Below are positions 26,116-30,886 of a stretch of DNA of 64,000 nucleotides, in pieces; position 1 is the first letter of the stretch; every line of letters starts with the position of its first letter. A program made the position numbers and the translations under genes. The notes beneath the pieces were generated by a model. It was not told the DNA's origin. It did no database searches and was given only the letters and a program-made list of their open reading frames with translations. The DNA comes from Planobispora longispora. GTDB lineage: Bacteria > Actinomycetota > Actinomycetes > Streptosporangiales > Streptosporangiaceae. The stretch lies in NCBI RefSeq assembly GCF_016863135.1, contig NZ_BOOH01000021.1, forward strand, positions 248,001 through 312,000, written 5' to 3'.

Positions 26116-26151
26116 AAAGGTGCATTCAAGAAACGGTCAAGCGGCACCTTT
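26116..26151 (+). promoter_or_regulatory. inverted repeat over the probable RiPP operon promoter
   Basis: AAAGGTGC (26116-26123) and GCACCTTT (26144-26151) form a perfect 8-bp inverted repeat with a 20-nt spacer. The region between holds TTCAAG and GGTCAA (possible -35) and the right arm runs into TTTTAGTG (possible -10). This is the only AT-rich patch upstream of the precursor gene, about 90 bp before its ATG. A dedicated regulator is not visible nearby. Confidence 0.45.
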
Positions 26152-26170
26152 TAGTGTCTTTTCTCGTAAG

Positions 26171-26223
26171 CGGGTCACCGAGTCGGAGACCCGGAAGAAA
26201 AGATCGAAGCCGTAGATGACGGC
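26171..26223 (+). promoter_or_regulatory. structured 5' leader of the RiPP precursor mRNA
   Basis: Two small stems can form: CGGGTC (26171-26176) with GACCCG (26188-26193), and GCCGT-AGATG-ACGGC (26209-26223). The second ends just before the AAAGGGGGAAA ribosome site. They may stabilise this short, highly expressed message; nothing resembles a known riboswitch. Confidence 0.35.
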
Positions 26224-26241
26224 TCAAAGGGGGAAACCAAT

Positions 26242-26379
26242 ATGTCGAAGTTCAGCATCGACGACATCCCGTTCGAGGGCGCGGAGCTCACCGAGGCCGA
26301 GCTGGGCGAGGTCGCCGGCGGCCGGATGAGCGTGTCCTGGAAGATCGGCGGCAAGCCGGCCGAGTGGGTCATCAGCTAA
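26242..26379 (+). CDS. RiPP precursor peptide with Gly-Gly leader
   Basis: A 45-residue peptide. Residues 1-27 form an acidic helical leader, with DDIPFEG near the start and ELTEAELGEVAGG at the end: the double-glycine pattern cut by C39 peptidases. The predicted core, residues 28-45, is RMSVSWKIGGKPAEWVIS. It has Ser30, Ser32, Lys34, Lys38 and Ser45 as possible nucleophiles but only one acidic side chain, Glu41, and no Cys. An ATP-grasp ligase gene follows, so a single Ser-Glu ester or Lys-Glu amide macrocycle is the simplest product. ATG 26242 follows AAAGGGGGAAACCAAT. No close relative comes to mind; the assignment rests on the leader type, size and context. Confidence 0.85.
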   Translation: MSKFSIDDIPFEGAELTEAELGEVAGGRMSVSWKIGGKPAEWVIS

Positions 26380-26404
26380 CCCTGCCCTGACACCACGGGG
26401 TGAC

Positions 26405-26438
26405 AAGCGGCGGAGCGGGCCCTCCCGCTCCGCCGCTT
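26405..26438 (+). terminator. hairpin between precursor and modification genes
   Basis: AAGCGGCGGAGCGGG and its exact complement flank CCCT, a perfect 15-bp stem, followed by CCTTT. It begins 25 bp after the precursor stop and ends 36 bp before the ATP-grasp start. In peptide operons such a partial terminator keeps precursor mRNA in excess of enzyme mRNA. Confidence 0.85.
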
Positions 26439-26474
26439 CCTTTGCGACGGGCTTCCTCTGTGACGGAAACGAGC

Positions 26475-27530
26475 ATGATCCTGATATTGAGTGACCGGCG
26501 GGACGACGCCGTCGAGCTGGTCCTGCCGAAGCTGGAGCGGCGTGGAGCCCGGGTGACCTGGTGGGATCCCGGCGACTTCCCCGCCCGCGGCAGGCTCACG
26601 GCCGCCTTCGCGGACGGCGGCCACCGGATCGTGCTCGACACCGGCGCCGAGCGGCTGGACCTGGCCGAGGTGCGCGCGGTGTGGCGGCGGCGGCCGAACG
26701 CGCCCCGCCCGGCGGAGACGGTGACCGAGCCCTCGCACCGCCGCCACGCGGTCTGGCAGGCGGAGTTCCTGCTCGACGGGGCGTGGGAACTCGCCCCCGC
26801 GCGGTGGCTGCCCTCGCGCAGGGAGGTCGAGCGCCGGGCGCACAACAAGATCATCCATATGGCGCGGGCGGCGGCGCTCGGTTTCCGGGTCCCGGAGACC
26901 GTCTACACCAACGACCCCGCCGAACTGGTGCCCGCCTACGAGCGCGCGGGCGGCAACCTGATCGCCAAGCAGATCAACTCCGACGAGTTCACCCTGGACG
27001 GCGCCGACCATCGCACGTACACCACCGTCCTGGGCCGCCGCCACCTCACCTCCCGTCACCGTCTCCAGCACGAGCCGGTCATCCTCCAGCCCTACGTGCC
27101 CAAGGCCGTGGAGCTGCGCGTGATCGTGGTGGGCGAGCGGGTCTTCGCCGCCGAGATCGACGCGCGGGACTCGCGCACGGCCAGGGACGACTGGCGGCAC
27201 TACGACGACGACCGGGTGCGCTACGCCGCGCACCGTCTCCCGGACGGGCTGGAGCGCGCGTGCGCGGAGCTGACCGCCTCGCTCGGACTGACCTACGGCG
27301 CCATCGACCTCATCCTCACTCCGGACGGGGAGTACGCCTTCCTGGAGATCAACCCCAACGGCGCCTGGGGTTTCGTGGAGCAGCGCGCGGGGCTGCCCGT
27401 CAGCGACGCGATCGCCGACTGGCTCGTGGCGGCGGACGGCATCGCGGAGCACGCGATGAGCGCCCCCGTGAACGACACGGCGACCCACCCCGCGAACGAC
27501 ACCGTGGACGGAAAGACAGATCATGAGTGA
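26475..27530 (+). CDS. ATP-grasp peptide ligase, graspetide (MvdD/TgmB-like) type
   Basis: A 351-residue ATP-grasp enzyme. A pre-ATP-grasp N-terminal domain (MILILSDRRDDAVELVLPKL) is followed by LIAKQIN (Lys165, ATP binding), ILQPYVPKAVELRVIVVG, GAIDLI (Asp278) and FLEINPNGAWGFVE (289-302), the Mg-binding signature shared by microviridin and other graspetide ligases. These enzymes activate an Asp/Glu carboxylate of the precursor as acyl phosphate and join it to a Ser/Thr or Lys side chain. The start at 26475 has only a weak ribosome site. Its stop lies inside the next gene's start (8-bp overlap), so expression is coupled. The sole plausible substrate is the 45-residue precursor just upstream. 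Confidence 0.88.
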   Translation: MILILSDRRDDAVELVLPKLERRGARVTWWDPGDFPARGRLTAAFADGGHRIVLDTGAERLDLAEVRAVWRRRPNAPRPAETVTEPSHRRHAVWQAEFLLDGAWELAPARWLPSRREVERRAHNKIIHMARAAALGFRVPETVYTNDPAELVPAYERAGGNLIAKQINSDEFTLDGADHRTYTTVLGRRHLTSRHRLQHEPVILQPYVPKAVELRVIVVGERVFAAEIDARDSRTARDDWRHYDDDRVRYAAHRLPDGLERACAELTASLGLTYGAIDLILTPDGEYAFLEINPNGAWGFVEQRAGLPVSDAIADWLVAADGIAEHAMSAPVNDTATHPANDTVDGKTDHE

Positions 27531-28524
27531 CTTCGGAAGCGCGCTCGAGTCCGGGGCGCGGCTGCTGCGCGGCCTGCCCCGGCGGCGGGCGCACGTGGCG
27601 CAGGCCAGGCGGACGGCCGCCGCGTGGGCGGCGGACCATCCCGGTCTCCAGGCCCAGCTCGTCGTCGACGAGCGGCCCGGCACCCCGGTGGTCGACTTCG
27701 ACCTCCTGCTGTCGGATCCCGAGGGCGGCACCGTCGCCCTCAGCGCGCAGGCCGAGGACGGCGTGCCCTGGCTGATCGACCACTCCACGCACTGGGCGGC
27801 CGGTCAGCTGGTCACCGTGGACGAGGTTCACCTGTCGGTGGCGCAGGCCCTGACCATGATCCGCTCGCTGTCGCGCCGCGACACGACGCCGCACGACGAG
27901 ATCGTCGACCAGTGCCTGATCATCAACGAGGTCGCGGGCGACGACGGGCCGGTCTCCGACGAGGAGCTCCAGGCCGCCGCGGACGAGTTCCGCAGGGGCC
28001 GGGGCCTGCACGACCGCGCCGCCACGCTGGCCTGGCTGACCGAGATGGGAATGACCCCCGGGCAGTTCGAGGACTACATCGGCGGCATCGCCCGCCGCCG
28101 GAGCTTCCGCCGCCGCAAGGAGGCCGAGCTCGGCCCGGCCCGCCTGGCCGCCCGCCCCGGGGACTTCGACCGGGTCCGCGCCGCCTGGATCACCGGGCCG
28201 GAGGGGGACGTCACCGGCAACCTCCCCGTCCTGGCCGCCCTCCACGGCGCCGGGACCGCCGCCCTGGCGGAGCTGGACGGCGAGGTCGAGACGGTGATCG
28301 CCGAGCGTTTCGCCGCCGACCTGCCCGCACCGCTGCGCGAGGCCGGGCCGGGGACCGTCGCCGGTCCCGTGCCCCACGGCGGGGGATTCCTGGCCGGGGC
28401 GGTCCTGGGCCGTACGGCCGCGCGCGACGACGAGCGCACGCTGGCCGCCGCCGGGCGCGTGGCGTTCACCGAGTGGCTGGCCGAGCGCCGCCGCCGGGCC
28501 GCAGTCGAATGGCACTGGTCGTGA
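27523..28524 (+). CDS. SurA/PpiC-like peptide maturation protein
   Basis: A 333-residue protein. Residues about 143-190 (VSDEELQAAADEFRRGRGL, AWLTEMGMTPGQFEDYI) resemble the N-terminal chaperone domain of SurA/PrsA, and the end (about 270-333, AEWLAERRRRAAVEWHW-like) resembles the parvulin region. No signal peptide or membrane segment is visible, so it should be cytoplasmic, unlike the true foldases. I recall a family annotated as 'putative peptide maturation system protein' with these traits, found near RiPP exporters; I have not run a search. Residues 1-130 match nothing I know. It overlaps both neighbours. It may bind the leader or present the core to the ligase. Confidence 0.75.
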   Translation: MSDFGSALESGARLLRGLPRRRAHVAQARRTAAAWAADHPGLQAQLVVDERPGTPVVDFDLLLSDPEGGTVALSAQAEDGVPWLIDHSTHWAAGQLVTVDEVHLSVAQALTMIRSLSRRDTTPHDEIVDQCLIINEVAGDDGPVSDEELQAAADEFRRGRGLHDRAATLAWLTEMGMTPGQFEDYIGGIARRRSFRRRKEAELGPARLAARPGDFDRVRAAWITGPEGDVTGNLPVLAALHGAGTAALAELDGEVETVIAERFAADLPAPLREAGPGTVAGPVPHGGGFLAGAVLGRTAARDDERTLAAAGRVAFTEWLAERRRRAAVEWHWS

Positions 28525-28706
28525 GCCGTCGCATCTTCCGGGAGGAGTCGCTCCGCCGGCACCGGAGCGCGGGGCGGCGGGACCGTACTCGGCTGACGAT
28601 CGGCACGGGCACCCTGGTGGCGCTGTGGGCGGTGGTCGCCCTGCTGGCGGTGGTGGCGGCGGTGTTCGCCGCGGCGCTGTACACCCGGATCGGGGGCGTG
28701 GCGTGA
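28521..28706 (+). CDS. 61-residue single-helix membrane protein, HlyD N-terminus-like
   Basis: A basic N-terminus (MSRRIFREESLRRHRSAGRRDRTRL) is followed by one hydrophobic helix at about 33-55 and then a short exposed end. The pattern of IFR-x-x-(S/A)L-x-R before the helix resembles the N-terminal anchor of HlyD-type adaptor proteins that pair with peptide ABC exporters, but the long periplasmic part is missing entirely. Both ends overlap neighbours by 4 bp (GTGA), so the short length is not a frameshift accident. The protein could be a stub adaptor or docking anchor for the exporter in a Gram-positive cell that has no outer membrane to cross. Confidence 0.78.
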   Translation: MSRRIFREESLRRHRSAGRRDRTRLTIGTGTLVALWAVVALLAVVAAVFAAALYTRIGGVA

Positions 28707-30853
28707 GACGCGTCCCCGTCGTGCTCCAGAACACCGCCACCGAGTGCGCCGCGGCGTGCCTGGCGATGGTCCTGTCCCACCACGGCCACCGCGCCTCCCT
28801 GCAGGAGATCACCGACCGGCTGCAGATCGGCCGGGACGGTCTCAGCGCGAAGGCGCTGCTGGAGGGCGCCCGCGAGTGCGGGCTGAAGGCGCGCGCCTTC
28901 TCCCTGAGCCCCGCCGACCTCGCCCGCGTTCCGATGCCCGCGGTGGTCCACTGGGAGTTCAACCACTTCGTGGTGGTCGAGCGCTGGTCCCCGGAGCGCG
29001 TCGACATCGTCGACCCCGCCAGGGGCCGCCGCAGGCTCACCGCGGAGGAGTTCGACGAGGGCTTCACCGGCGTGGTGCTCGCCTTCGAGCCCGGCCCCGG
29101 TTTCCAGCCGGGGCGCTCCAGCGCCGGCACGGCCTGGCGCCGCCGGTTCCTGCGCACGCTGCTGGCTCGCAGGAAGGGCCTGCTGGCCCAGGTCGTCCTG
29201 GCCTCGCTCCTGCTCCAGCTGCTCGGTCTCGCGCTGCCGCTGTTCTCCGAGGCGCTGGTGGACCGCGTGCTGCCGGGGGAGGACGGCGGGCTGCTGAGCA
29301 TGATCGGCCTGGGGCTGGCGCTGGCCGGCGTGACCCAGTTCGCGGTCGGCTACCTCCGCTCGGTGCTGCTGGTCTCCGTCCGCGCGGGCGCCGACGCCGA
29401 ACTGACCGGGGGAGTGGTCTCCCACCTGGTCGCCCTGCCGTACCGCTACTTCACCCAGCGGGGCAAGGGCGATCTGGTGGCGCGCGCCGGGAGCGTGGCG
29501 GTCCTGCGGGAGATGCTCACCGGGCAGGTGCTCTCGGCCCTGCTCGACGGGCCGCTCGCCCTGGGCTACCTGGTCCTGGTGTTCGTCTGGGACCCCGTCG
29601 TCGGCGCCTGCCTGCTCGGGTTCGCGGCACTGCAGGTGCTGCTCCTGCTGGCCACCGCCCGCAGGGTCAACCGGCTCACCCAGGAGGAGCTCAGCGCCTT
29701 CTCCGCCACCCAGAGCCAGCTCGTCCAGGCCATCGGCGGCATCGAGACGCTGAAGGCGTCGGGAGCGGAGCACCGCGCGGTCGAGCAGTGGTCGAAGCAC
29801 TTCACCGACCAGCTGAACGCCGACATCCGGGGCGGCCTGACCCAGGGCCTGCTGGACGCCGCGCTCGGCGCCCTGCGCCTGCTCGCCCCGCTCGCGCTGC
29901 TGTGGGTCGGCGCGTGGCGGGTGCTCGACGGGGAGCTGACCCTGGGGGCCCTGCTGGCCCTGAACGCCCTGTCCGTGGCCGCGCTCATGCCCATCGCCGC
30001 GCTGATGACCAGCCTGCAGGGGCTCCAGCAGGCCGGGGCGCACTTCGACCGGCTCTCCGACATCCTCGCCTCCGAGCCCGAGCCGGCCGCCGGGATCGAG
30101 GTGGTCAGGCTGCGCGGCTCGATCGAGCTGCACGGCGTCGGCTTCCGGCACGACCCGCGCGGGCCGTGGACGCTGCGCGGCATCTCGGTGAAGATCCGCG
30201 CGGGGCAGAAGGTCGCGCTCGTCGGCCCGTCCGGGGCGGGCAAGAGCACGCTGGCCCGGCTCCTGCTGGCCCTGTACACCCCTACCGAGGGACAGGTCAG
30301 CTACGACGGGGTGCCGCTGCCGCAGCTCAACCTCCGCTCCCTGCGTCACCAGTTCGGCGTGGTCAACCAGGAGCCGTCACTGTTCACCGGCTCGATCCGG
30401 GAGAACATCGCGCTCAACGATCCCGACGCCCCGCTGGAGCGGATCATCGAGGCGGCCGAGCTGGCCTGCCTGCACGAGGAGATCTGCGCGATGCCCATGG
30501 GGTACGAGACCATGCTGGTGGAGGGCGGGGGCCTGTCCGGCGGCCAGCGGCAGCGGCTCGCGCTCGCCCGGGCGCTGCTGGCGCGTCCGAAGATCCTGCT
30601 TCTCGACGAGGCCACCAGCCACCTCGACAGCACCAGCGAGGCGCGGATCGAGTCCAACCTCGGCTGGCTCACCCAGACGCGCATCGTGATCGCCCACCGG
30701 CTGAGCACCGTCAGGGACGCCGACCTCATCCTCGTCGTGGACGACGGGGAGATCGTGGAGCGGGGCACCCACGACGGGCTGCTCGCCCGGGGCGGCCGGT
30801 ACGCGAAGCTGGTGGCGGCGCAGGCCGCCGATCCGGTCCCGGCCGGGGGCTGA
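28703..30853 (+). CDS. C39 peptidase-containing ABC exporter for the RiPP
   Basis: A 716-residue fusion of leader peptidase, membrane domain and ATPase. The C39 domain (1-140) has Gln9, catalytic Cys15 (NTATECAAACLAM), His88 (NHFVVVE) and Asp104 (VDPARG), so it should be active. About six helices follow (150-440). The ATPase has Walker A VGPSGAGKST, signature LSGGQRQRLALARALL, Walker B KILLLDEATSHLD and the H-loop AHRLSTV. It should cut after Gly27 of the precursor and export the core. GTG 28703 overlaps the previous stop by 4 bp. The operon ends at a convergent terminator. This is the last gene of the cluster. Confidence 0.92.
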   Translation: MRRVPVVLQNTATECAAACLAMVLSHHGHRASLQEITDRLQIGRDGLSAKALLEGARECGLKARAFSLSPADLARVPMPAVVHWEFNHFVVVERWSPERVDIVDPARGRRRLTAEEFDEGFTGVVLAFEPGPGFQPGRSSAGTAWRRRFLRTLLARRKGLLAQVVLASLLLQLLGLALPLFSEALVDRVLPGEDGGLLSMIGLGLALAGVTQFAVGYLRSVLLVSVRAGADAELTGGVVSHLVALPYRYFTQRGKGDLVARAGSVAVLREMLTGQVLSALLDGPLALGYLVLVFVWDPVVGACLLGFAALQVLLLLATARRVNRLTQEELSAFSATQSQLVQAIGGIETLKASGAEHRAVEQWSKHFTDQLNADIRGGLTQGLLDAALGALRLLAPLALLWVGAWRVLDGELTLGALLALNALSVAALMPIAALMTSLQGLQQAGAHFDRLSDILASEPEPAAGIEVVRLRGSIELHGVGFRHDPRGPWTLRGISVKIRAGQKVALVGPSGAGKSTLARLLLALYTPTEGQVSYDGVPLPQLNLRSLRHQFGVVNQEPSLFTGSIRENIALNDPDAPLERIIEAAELACLHEEICAMPMGYETMLVEGGGLSGGQRQRLALARALLARPKILLLDEATSHLDSTSEARIESNLGWLTQTRIVIAHRLSTVRDADLILVVDDGEIVERGTHDGLLARGGRYAKLVAAQAADPVPAGG

Positions 30854-30869
30854 CCGGCGCCGGCCGGGA

Positions 30870-30886
30870 GCCCGCCGGGGGCGGGC
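30870..30886. terminator. terminator at the end of the RiPP operon
   Basis: GCCCGCC-GGG-GGCGGGC, a perfect 7-bp stem between convergent genes (stops at 30853 and 30910). It can serve both the exporter and the DHFR-like gene. Confidence 0.6.

What the first reader, a model, noticed from the sequence alone, without database searches (positions are those of the whole stretch)
26116..30886. Complete, compact RiPP operon with an ATP-grasp ligase, a SurA/PpiC-like protein, a tiny membrane anchor and a C39 exporter
Seen: a 45-residue Gly-Gly precursor, then an ATP-grasp gene with the FLEINPNG motif, a SurA-like protein, a 61-residue single-helix protein and a C39-ABC exporter, each overlapping the next, all on one strand between a promoter-like inverted repeat and a convergent terminator. 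Known: graspetide ligases make ester or amide macrocycles, and C39 domains cut after Gly-Gly. Inference: a new graspetide-like class whose maturation needs the SurA-like protein. I recall no characterised product from this gene set, but no search was run.
Basis: partly seen in the sequence, partly recalled or inferred. Interest (0 to 1): 0.88.

Follow-up and report, generated by a model that had tools for sequence, protein, structure and literature searches.

The report
One-ring graspetide cluster with chaperone partner
A soil bacterium carries a gene set that probably makes a small peptide closed by a single ester ring, using a ring-forming enzyme that leans on a chaperone-like partner; that enzyme-partner pairing was published in 2026 for a relative, but this peptide type and a small membrane part of the set look little studied.

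Summary
The genes are real: a double-glycine precursor, an ATP-grasp ligase, a SurA/PpiC-related protein, a 61-residue one-helix protein and a C39 exporter, on one strand. It is not a new class: leader (TIGR04497) and SurA-like protein (TIGR04500) match curated NCBI families, and the ligase-partner-exporter set matches the rosaritide (mir) cluster, whose partner was shown in 2026 to be essential (PMC13097080). New here: (1) the core differs from rosaritide. Fourteen distinct cores from 16 regions share [VI][ST]W...G...EW with one invariant donor (Ser/Thr5) and one invariant acceptor (Glu14), so one macrolactone is predicted, not three. (2) In a tree of 89 ligases, window and rosaritide-type rows lie on opposite sides of a 100/100 branch. 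(3) The one-helix protein recurs in 41 of 46 regions with partner-exporter order, window included, and in 0 of 9 loci of the rosaritide-type ligase branch. (4) A strong hairpin follows the last precursor in 58 of 66 loci. (5) The partner model has a parvulin-like order, but window-side partners match no rotamase model, so that part is tentative. No chemistry was measured. New variant of a known kind.

The parts
26242..26379 (+). precursor peptide, 45 aa: leader 26242-26322 (residues 1-27, ends GG), core 26323-26376 RMSVSWKIGGKPAEWVIS
   Evidence: TIGR04497 GRASP_targ_2, 48.2 bits over cut-off 32; 14 distinct cores from 16 regions keep [ST]5, W6, E14, W15
26405..26438 (+). perfect 15-bp GC-rich hairpin (4-nt loop), no long T run, between precursor and ligase: proposed attenuator or 3'-end stabiliser
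   Evidence: z -4.44; strong hairpin in 58 of 66 loci against 2 of 66 (shuffle means) and 8 of 66 (upstream control)
26460..27530 (+). ATP-grasp graspetide synthetase (GTG 26460 or ATG 26475)
   Evidence: best NCBIfam model TIGR04187 237 bits, below its cut-off of 350; PF21068 44.5 over 27; PDB chains 5ig8 (ATP grasp ligase), 7m4s (AMdnB), 7mgv (CdnC)
27523..28524 (+). TIGR04500 partner protein: N-domain of unknown kind, SurA-type helical part, parvulin-like order at about residues 217-298 (tentative), WxW near the C-terminus
   Evidence: TIGR04500 326.5 over cut-off 180; AF2 model pLDDT 80; Foldseek to SurA/PrsA/Cj1289 at low TM-scores; rotamase models match 7 of 8 partners of the other side but 0 of 7 of the window side and 0 of 2 rosaritide-type ones
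28521..28706 (+). 61-aa one-helix protein with IFREESLRR before the helix; proposed exporter accessory subunit
   Evidence: protein of this kind in 41 of 46 regions with C-then-D order, window included; 0 of 9 loci on the rosaritide-type ligase branch; no family over its cut-off
28703..30853 (+). C39 peptidase-containing ABC exporter (PCAT)
   Evidence: PF03412 121.7, PF00664 113, PF00005 119.4, all over cut-off; best NCBIfam TIGR03796 622, below cut-off 853
26163..26182 (+). conserved upstream block CTCGTAAGCGGGTCACCGAG, candidate regulatory element
   Evidence: near-invariant in the window and three Planobispora species, partly in Planomonospora

Best explanation
A partner-dependent graspetide cluster. 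The precursor's leader is bound by the ATP-grasp synthetase in complex with the TIGR04500 partner, a SurA-type chaperone-like protein. The synthetase phosphorylates the single core glutamate (E14) and the hydroxyl of Ser5 attacks it, giving one macrolactone that clamps a Trp-flanked loop (S5-W6...G-K-P...E14-W15; -18.01 Da). The C39 exporter, probably with the one-helix protein as accessory, cuts after Gly-Gly and exports an 18-residue monocyclic peptide (predicted monoisotopic mass 2012.067). The hairpin after the precursor probably keeps precursor mRNA in excess over enzyme mRNA. Shown by sequence: genes, families, conservation, tree, hairpin. Shown by others in a relative (rosaritide): need for the partner, and complex formation. 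Inferred: ring identity, leader binding, export role, regulation.
For: Families; published mir cluster of the same families with an essential partner; one invariant acceptor (E14) and one invariant donor (S/T5), each in 14 of 14 distinct cores, while Lys at alignment columns 7, 10 and 12 is present in 1, 5 and 10 of 14 and Ser/Thr at column 3 in 10 of 14; sister type II cores keep Ser and Glu in a SAW...EW frame, 6 of 6; core types follow the synthetase tree (19 changes against 62.3 in shuffles), types II and III each on one 100/100 branch, I and II together in a 100/99 clade of 25 rows (15 I, 7 II, 3 without assigned core); a ligase gene in 88 of 93 regions with the partner (79 of 84 without 9 duplicates); Gly-Gly leader and C39 domain in the same gene set.
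Against: No product, mass or activity was seen. Ligase and exporter score below the curated cut-offs of their best models. The window ligase is only 36-40% identical to rosaritide-type ligases, so partner dependence is carried over by homology. Type I rows are not one branch of the ligase tree (4 changes, 3 forced by well supported branches), partly because type II branches from among them and rows of this clade had no assigned core. Ser3, Lys7 and Lys11 exist in the window core and could compete as donors. Three of 14 cores have a second Glu at column 17, so two rings cannot be excluded there. Streptosporangium carneum (L036) keeps ligase, partner, one-helix gene and exporter but no precursor that I could find.
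Confidence: 0.68

Rival explanations
1. Macrolactam instead of macrolactone: Glu14 is joined to Lys7 or Lys11 (an isopeptide bond).
For: Both lysines are in the window core; Lys at column 12 (window Lys11) in 10 of 14 cores; corallotide uses Lys.
Against: Column 12 is Arg or Gln in 4 of 14 and column 7 is Lys in 1 of 14; all three rosaritide linkages are esters.
Confidence: 0.12
2. The TIGR04500 protein is an active prolyl isomerase that flips the Lys-Pro bond of the core.
For: Parvulin-like order in the model; rotamase matches in 7 of 8 partners scanned from the other side of the tree, one above cut-off; Pro at column 13 in 11 of 13 cores.
Against: No rotamase match for the window protein or six others of its side; histidines that I recall as catalytic are not evident in that stretch; the Pro is Ala in 2 of 13 cores; the 11 type III cores have no Pro; both Pro assigned in rosaritide are trans.
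Confidence: 0.08
3. A rosaritide-like three-ring product.
For: Same gene families; one connected set of synthetases at alignment score 70 in my sample.
Against: The core has one Asp/Glu only, so three acceptor-donor pairs cannot form.
Confidence: 0.02
4. The ATP-grasp ligase does other peptide chemistry (for example adds a residue) and makes no ring.
For: Scores below the TIGR04187 cut-off.
Against: Closest solved relatives include AMdnB and CdnC, which I know as ring-forming; the published relative with the same kind of partner cyclises.
Confidence: 0.06

Closest known systems
Rosaritide (mir) cluster, graspetide group 21, Micromonospora rosaria (PMC13097080)
   Same: Precursor, TIGR04187-type synthetase, TIGR04500 partner, PCAT; in rosaritide-type loci found here the leader is related (43-45% over 22-23 residues) and the synthetase 36-40% identical
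   Different: Core has one acceptor instead of Asp22/24/26 and one invariant donor instead of Ser8/Ser9/Thr11; an extra one-helix gene between partner and exporter (0 of 9 loci on the rosaritide-type ligase branch have it); synthetase on the other side of a 100/100 branch
Microviridin-type ligases and chryseoviridin ligase CdnC (PDB 5ig8, 7m4s, 7mgv; that 5ig8 is microviridin-type is recalled)
   Same: ATP-grasp sequence family; ELR and FLE-x-NP stretches shared with 5ig8 and 7m4s
   Different: No SurA-like partner is known to me for them; leader and core unrelated (recalled)
SurA / PrsA / Cj1289 chaperones
   Same: Best Foldseek matches of the partner model; SurA_N_3 matches below cut-off in two rosaritide-type partners
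   Different: TM-scores only about 0.3; no signal peptide seen by eye; extra N-domain; encoded with a peptide ligase
Corallotide (graspetide group 15)
   Same: Synthetase works with a partner protein; one ring per repeat
   Different: Partner is a 2OG oxygenase; Lys-Asp isopeptide rings in a large precursor

Membership tests
Graspetide cluster (class) | ATP-grasp graspetide synthetase | tested here: met
   Best models TIGR04187/04185/04184, all below their curated cut-offs; PF21068 above cut-off; PDB chains 5ig8 and 7m4s at E 3e-69 or better
Graspetide cluster (class) | Adjacent precursor whose core has conserved Ser/Thr/Lys donor and Asp/Glu acceptor | tested here: met
   S/T5 and E14 in 14 of 14 distinct cores
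Graspetide cluster (class) | Side-chain lactone or lactam in the product | not testable with these tools
   needs mass spectrometry
TIGR04500 partner family | Score above the curated cut-off | tested here: met
   326.5 against 180
TIGR04497 leader family | Score above the curated cut-off | tested here: met
   48.2 against 32
TIGR04187 synthetase model | Score above the curated cut-off | tested here: not met
   237.2 against 350 although the best hit
TIGR03796 exporter model | Score above the curated cut-off | tested here: not met
   622 against 853.3 although the best hit
Graspetide group 21 (rosaritide group) | Synthetase linked at network alignment score 70 (formula recalled, computed on trimmed domains) | tested here: inconclusive
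   All 89 synthetases of my sample form one component at 70 and two at 80; direct window-rosaritide scores are 48-56; the published network was not available
Rosaritide-type product | Three donors (SSxT) and three Asp acceptors in the core | tested here: not met
   one Glu, no Asp in the window core
Rosaritide-type biosynthesis | Synthetase inactive without the partner | not testable with these tools
   shown for MirB/MirC only
PpiC/parvulin isomerase | Sequence match to a rotamase model, with catalytic histidines (residues recalled) | tested here: not met
   No Pfam rotamase hit for the window protein; the parvulin-like stretch 217-298 has few His by eye and none at the places I recall. Fold order alone is suggestive
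Canonical RRE (PqqD-like) | PqqD-type match in the N-domain | tested here: not met
   No Pfam hit; model shows two helices before the strands, unlike the PqqD order as I recall it; the paper calls the resemblance weak for MirC
NHLM HlyD-type membrane fusion protein (for the 61-aa protein) | TIGR03794 match | tested here: not met
   No hit at E up to 1 for the window protein or for three long and two short relatives; profile alignment P 0.0024, probability 12%

The most novel reading that the evidence does not exclude
A large, little-explored side of the partner-dependent graspetides makes minimal one-ring, Trp-flanked ester loops: the synthetase works only inside a complex with a SurA-type chaperone whose parvulin part has worn away, and this complex sits at a membrane export machine held by a dedicated one-helix subunit that the rosaritide system lacks. 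(I lowered the probability from 0.4 after weakened the parvulin part.)
Probability: 0.35. Interest if true: 0.65.

Novelty: new variant of a known kind. Interest (0 to 1): 0.5.

Why it matters
Characterised graspetide synthetases typically install several linkages (PMC13097080). A core with one possible ring is a very small substrate on which to ask what the SurA-type partner does: fold the ligase, hold the leader, or shape the core. Core types that follow the synthetase tree give natural swaps for testing specificity. The one-helix protein and the post-precursor hairpin are conserved parts that I did not see described in the passages read, although PMC8939145 lists uncharacterised membrane proteins beside ATP-grasp genes that may include the former.

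Tried and rejected
Rejected: 'new class' (led to the published rosaritide work). Rejected: three-ring product (composition). Rejected: promoter-like inverted repeat as a conserved element. Softened: I first read the partner as contradicting the paper's remark that the MirC C-domain is unlike the PPIase domain of Cj1289; but two rosaritide-type partners match SurA_N_3 (below cut-off) and no rotamase model, so for MirC itself I have nothing against the remark. Left as a lead: one-helix protein as a HlyD remnant; three long forms of Sphaerisporangium give no NCBIfam hit and in Pfam only a weak DUF4307 match in one of them, the profile alignment is weak, and the AF2 model of a long form is too poor (pLDDT 59) to search; a similar FRxxAL before the helix is seen in HlyD-type proteins of relatives. 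Not pursued: that the partner's WxW tail mimics the EW of the core; it is kept also where cores lack EW. A profile search of the partner against PDB sequences gave nothing at E up to 10. PADLOC, PHROGs and Rfam were not searched.

Rows dropped before counts: nine regions that duplicate others from the same genome (L074, L077, L078, L080, L084, L089, L091, L092, L102) were left out of the trees and; L042 (decayed) also out, L124 out. Partners shorter than 280 aligned residues were left out. From the family search I fetched 80 regions going down the list by rank with several skipped; 79 of the 80 were above the cut-off; the rest were not examined. Core types were assigned by hand-written patterns; of 80 synthetase rows 13 had no assigned core and 4 were unclassed. 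One of the 13 (L101) has a type I core in a frame without a usual start codon at the expected place. The leader count of 66 includes a weak hit (L120, E 0.11).
Full report
WHAT IS THERE. Five genes on the + strand: precursor 26242-26379, ATP-grasp 26460-27530, SurA-like 27523-28524, one-helix protein 28521-28706, C39 exporter 28703-30853. The precursor is TIGR04497 (48.2 bits, cut-off 32), the SurA-like protein TIGR04500 (326.5, cut-off 180). The ligase's best model is TIGR04187 (237, cut-off 350) and the exporter's TIGR03796 (622, cut-off 853), both below the curated cut-offs. Pfam finds the MvdD pre-ATP-grasp domain and the C39, ABC membrane and ATPase domains above cut-off. A PDB profile search puts the ligase with 5ig8 (238.6 bits), 7m4s (AMdnB) and 7mgv (CdnC). 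The flanking genes, a beta-lactamase-family protein and a RibD_C protein on the other strand, do not look like part of the set. The host is Planobispora-like: partner homologues of three Planobispora species are 87-88% identical.

WHAT IS ALREADY KNOWN. A full-text search for TIGR04500 returned two papers. PMC13097080 (2026; I read parts 1-4 of 6 and passages) describes rosaritide from Micromonospora rosaria: precursor MirA, synthetase MirB (TIGR04187), MirC (TIGR04500), PCAT MirD (TIGR03796), group 21. MirB made no linkage without MirC, the two copurified as an active complex, and three macrolactones join Ser8-Asp22, Ser9-Asp26 and Thr11-Asp24. PMC8939145 (passages) lists TIGR04500 proteins among ATP-grasp neighbours. 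So the trio and the need for the SurA-like protein are not new.

SURVEY. TIGR04500 matched 103 of 341 genomes of the host family (77 over the cut-off), 21 of 394 in an even draw of the class, which includes genomes of the host family (14 over), and 16 of 354 in another family of the class (8 over). Of 93 regions examined (window, L033-L124), 88 have a ligase gene; the five without are L042, L105, L112, L115 and L124. Nine regions duplicate others, leaving 79 of 84. A leader model grown from the window's relatives found precursors in 66 of those 84 regions (one weakly), plus a shortened leader in L042, with several core types behind one leader.

THE CORE. The window core RMSVSWKIGGKPAEWVIS is one of 14 distinct type I cores from 16 regions (window, three Planobispora, Planomonospora, Streptosporangium, Sphaerisporangium and unnamed relatives). 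Trp6, a Gly, Glu14 and Trp15 never vary, and position 5 is always Ser or Thr. No other acceptor column is filled in more than 3 of 14, and no other donor column in more than 10 of 14. A Ser/Thr5-Glu14 ester is the only ring all members can form. Type II cores (6 distinct) keep SAW...EW with one invariant acceptor and two invariant donor columns; further Asp occur in 5 of 6, so they could carry more rings. Type III (11 distinct) has one invariant Asp and a Glu in 4 of 11. One type II region (L075) has a second precursor with a different core. Single rings as such are not unheard of: corallotide has one per repeat, and PMC8939145 says that two precursor clusters could form only one ester; I could not see whether one of these is type I.

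RELATION TO ROSARITIDE. In the second family, precursor L187 has a core that agrees with the residue numbers printed for MirA (Ser8, Ser9, Thr11, Asp13, Asp14, Ile15, Pro16, Arg20, Pro21, Asp22, Thr23, Asp24, Ser25, Asp26). Of nine loci fetched there, six have that SSKTIDDIPGGGRPDTD core, one (L188) a variant (SSYT...), and two (L183, L184) gave no precursor by pattern; all nine ligases form one 100/100 branch. In the tree of 89 synthetases the window lies among 35 rows, with all type I and II rows, on one side of a 100/100 branch; the rosaritide-type branch is on the other side. At alignment score 70 (formula recalled, trimmed domains) all 89 are one connected set, at 80 they split 54 and 35 along that branch; direct window-rosaritide scores are 48-56. 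I call it a sister subgroup of the TIGR04500-linked graspetides, not a rosaritide homologue. Core type follows the tree (19 changes against 62.3 in shuffles), but type I itself needs 4 changes, so it is not one branch.

THE PARTNER. The AF2 model (12 sequences, pLDDT 80, pTM 0.65) has an N-terminal helix-helix-strand domain, SurA-type helices and, at residues 217-298, strand-helices-strand-helix-strand-strand, the parvulin order as I recall it. Foldseek finds Cj1289, SurA and PrsA (best E 5e-6, but TM-scores about 0.3 and large rmsd) and, weakly, isolated parvulin domains 3gpk and 2kgj (E 0.12 and 0.64; TM by target 0.49 and 0.48). Of eight partners scanned from the other side of the ligase tree, seven match PF13145 Rotamase_2 below its cut-off (two of them at E 0.05) and one of these (L054) PF00639 above its cut-off; L100 matches none. 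Of the window side, the window, L040, L075, L034, L079, L114 and L118 match none, and neither do two rosaritide-type partners, which match SurA_N_3 below cut-off. So a parvulin-like ancestry is supported in part of the family, and for the window protein it rests on the model alone. The paper says that the MirC C-domain is unlike the PPIase domain of Cj1289; I have nothing against that for MirC. Trp330 and Trp332 near the C-terminus are invariant in 31 aligned rows, mostly with Glu before the first; only 38 of 86 partners have this WxW within the last nine residues of the reading frame as I delimited it.

THE ONE-HELIX PROTEIN. Between partner and exporter, 41 of 46 regions with that order (window included) hold a protein with a hydrophobic helix; 40 of the 41 match a loose [YF]R pattern. 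Another (L040) has such a protein but missed my end criterion. The four without are L043, L119, L122 and L123. In nine of nine loci of the rosaritide-type branch the gap is 3-9 nt and there is none. Some Sphaerisporangium forms add about 110 residues beyond the helix. No family model matches over its cut-off. An exporter accessory role is inferred from position only. PMC8939145 lists two clusters of uncharacterised membrane proteins beside ATP-grasp genes; whether they include this protein I could not see.

THE HAIRPIN. 26405-26438 is a perfect 15-bp stem (z -4.44). In 58 of 66 loci the best 45-nt fold within 130 nt after the last precursor is -27 kcal/mol or lower, against 2 of 66 for the mean of four shuffles each and 8 of 66 in an upstream control stretch. 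Stem sequences differ between loci; I ran no covariation test.

VERDICT. A real, conserved graspetide gene set of the published partner-dependent kind, with a one-ring core type and extra conserved parts that I did not find described. The ring, partner dependence and export steps are predictions. Searches behind 'not found in print': in an open-licence library only; the 2021 graspetide survey (PMC8688276, cited) was not held.

Noticed in passing
L044:8323-13339 (own genome, contig C19): A second TIGR04500 cluster in the same genome, with exporter upstream, two precursors with ...DPPG.C..D cores, ligase and partner (type IV); the window partner is 31% identical to it.
   Followed up: partly
L105, L112, L115, L124, L114, L079: Between what look by eye like a pyruvate-dehydrogenase E2 gene and a Dabb-type gene, L105, L112, L115 and L124 (the last without the N-domain) have a TIGR04500 gene but no ligase, L114 has ligase plus partner, and L079 has a full cluster plus a second partner copy. 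It may be an old insertion site with a retained partner.
   Followed up: partly
L036 and L042: Streptosporangium carneum keeps ligase, partner, one-helix gene and exporter but no precursor that I could find; S. amethystogenes has a shortened leader, a partner with an internal gap and no ligase in the 9,668 bases held.
   Followed up: partly
L041:3301-3438 and L041:3631-3774: Sphaerisporangium perillae carries two type I precursors with identical leaders and different cores.
   Followed up: yes
L116, L117, L120-L123, L043: Further partner-linked loci have small ORFs with another leader (IDDLD...L.DDALD.V.GG-like in several) and other cores; the leader model used here misses most of them.
   Followed up: no
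window:27523-28524: The partner family keeps a WxW near its C-terminus, whatever the core type.
   Followed up: no
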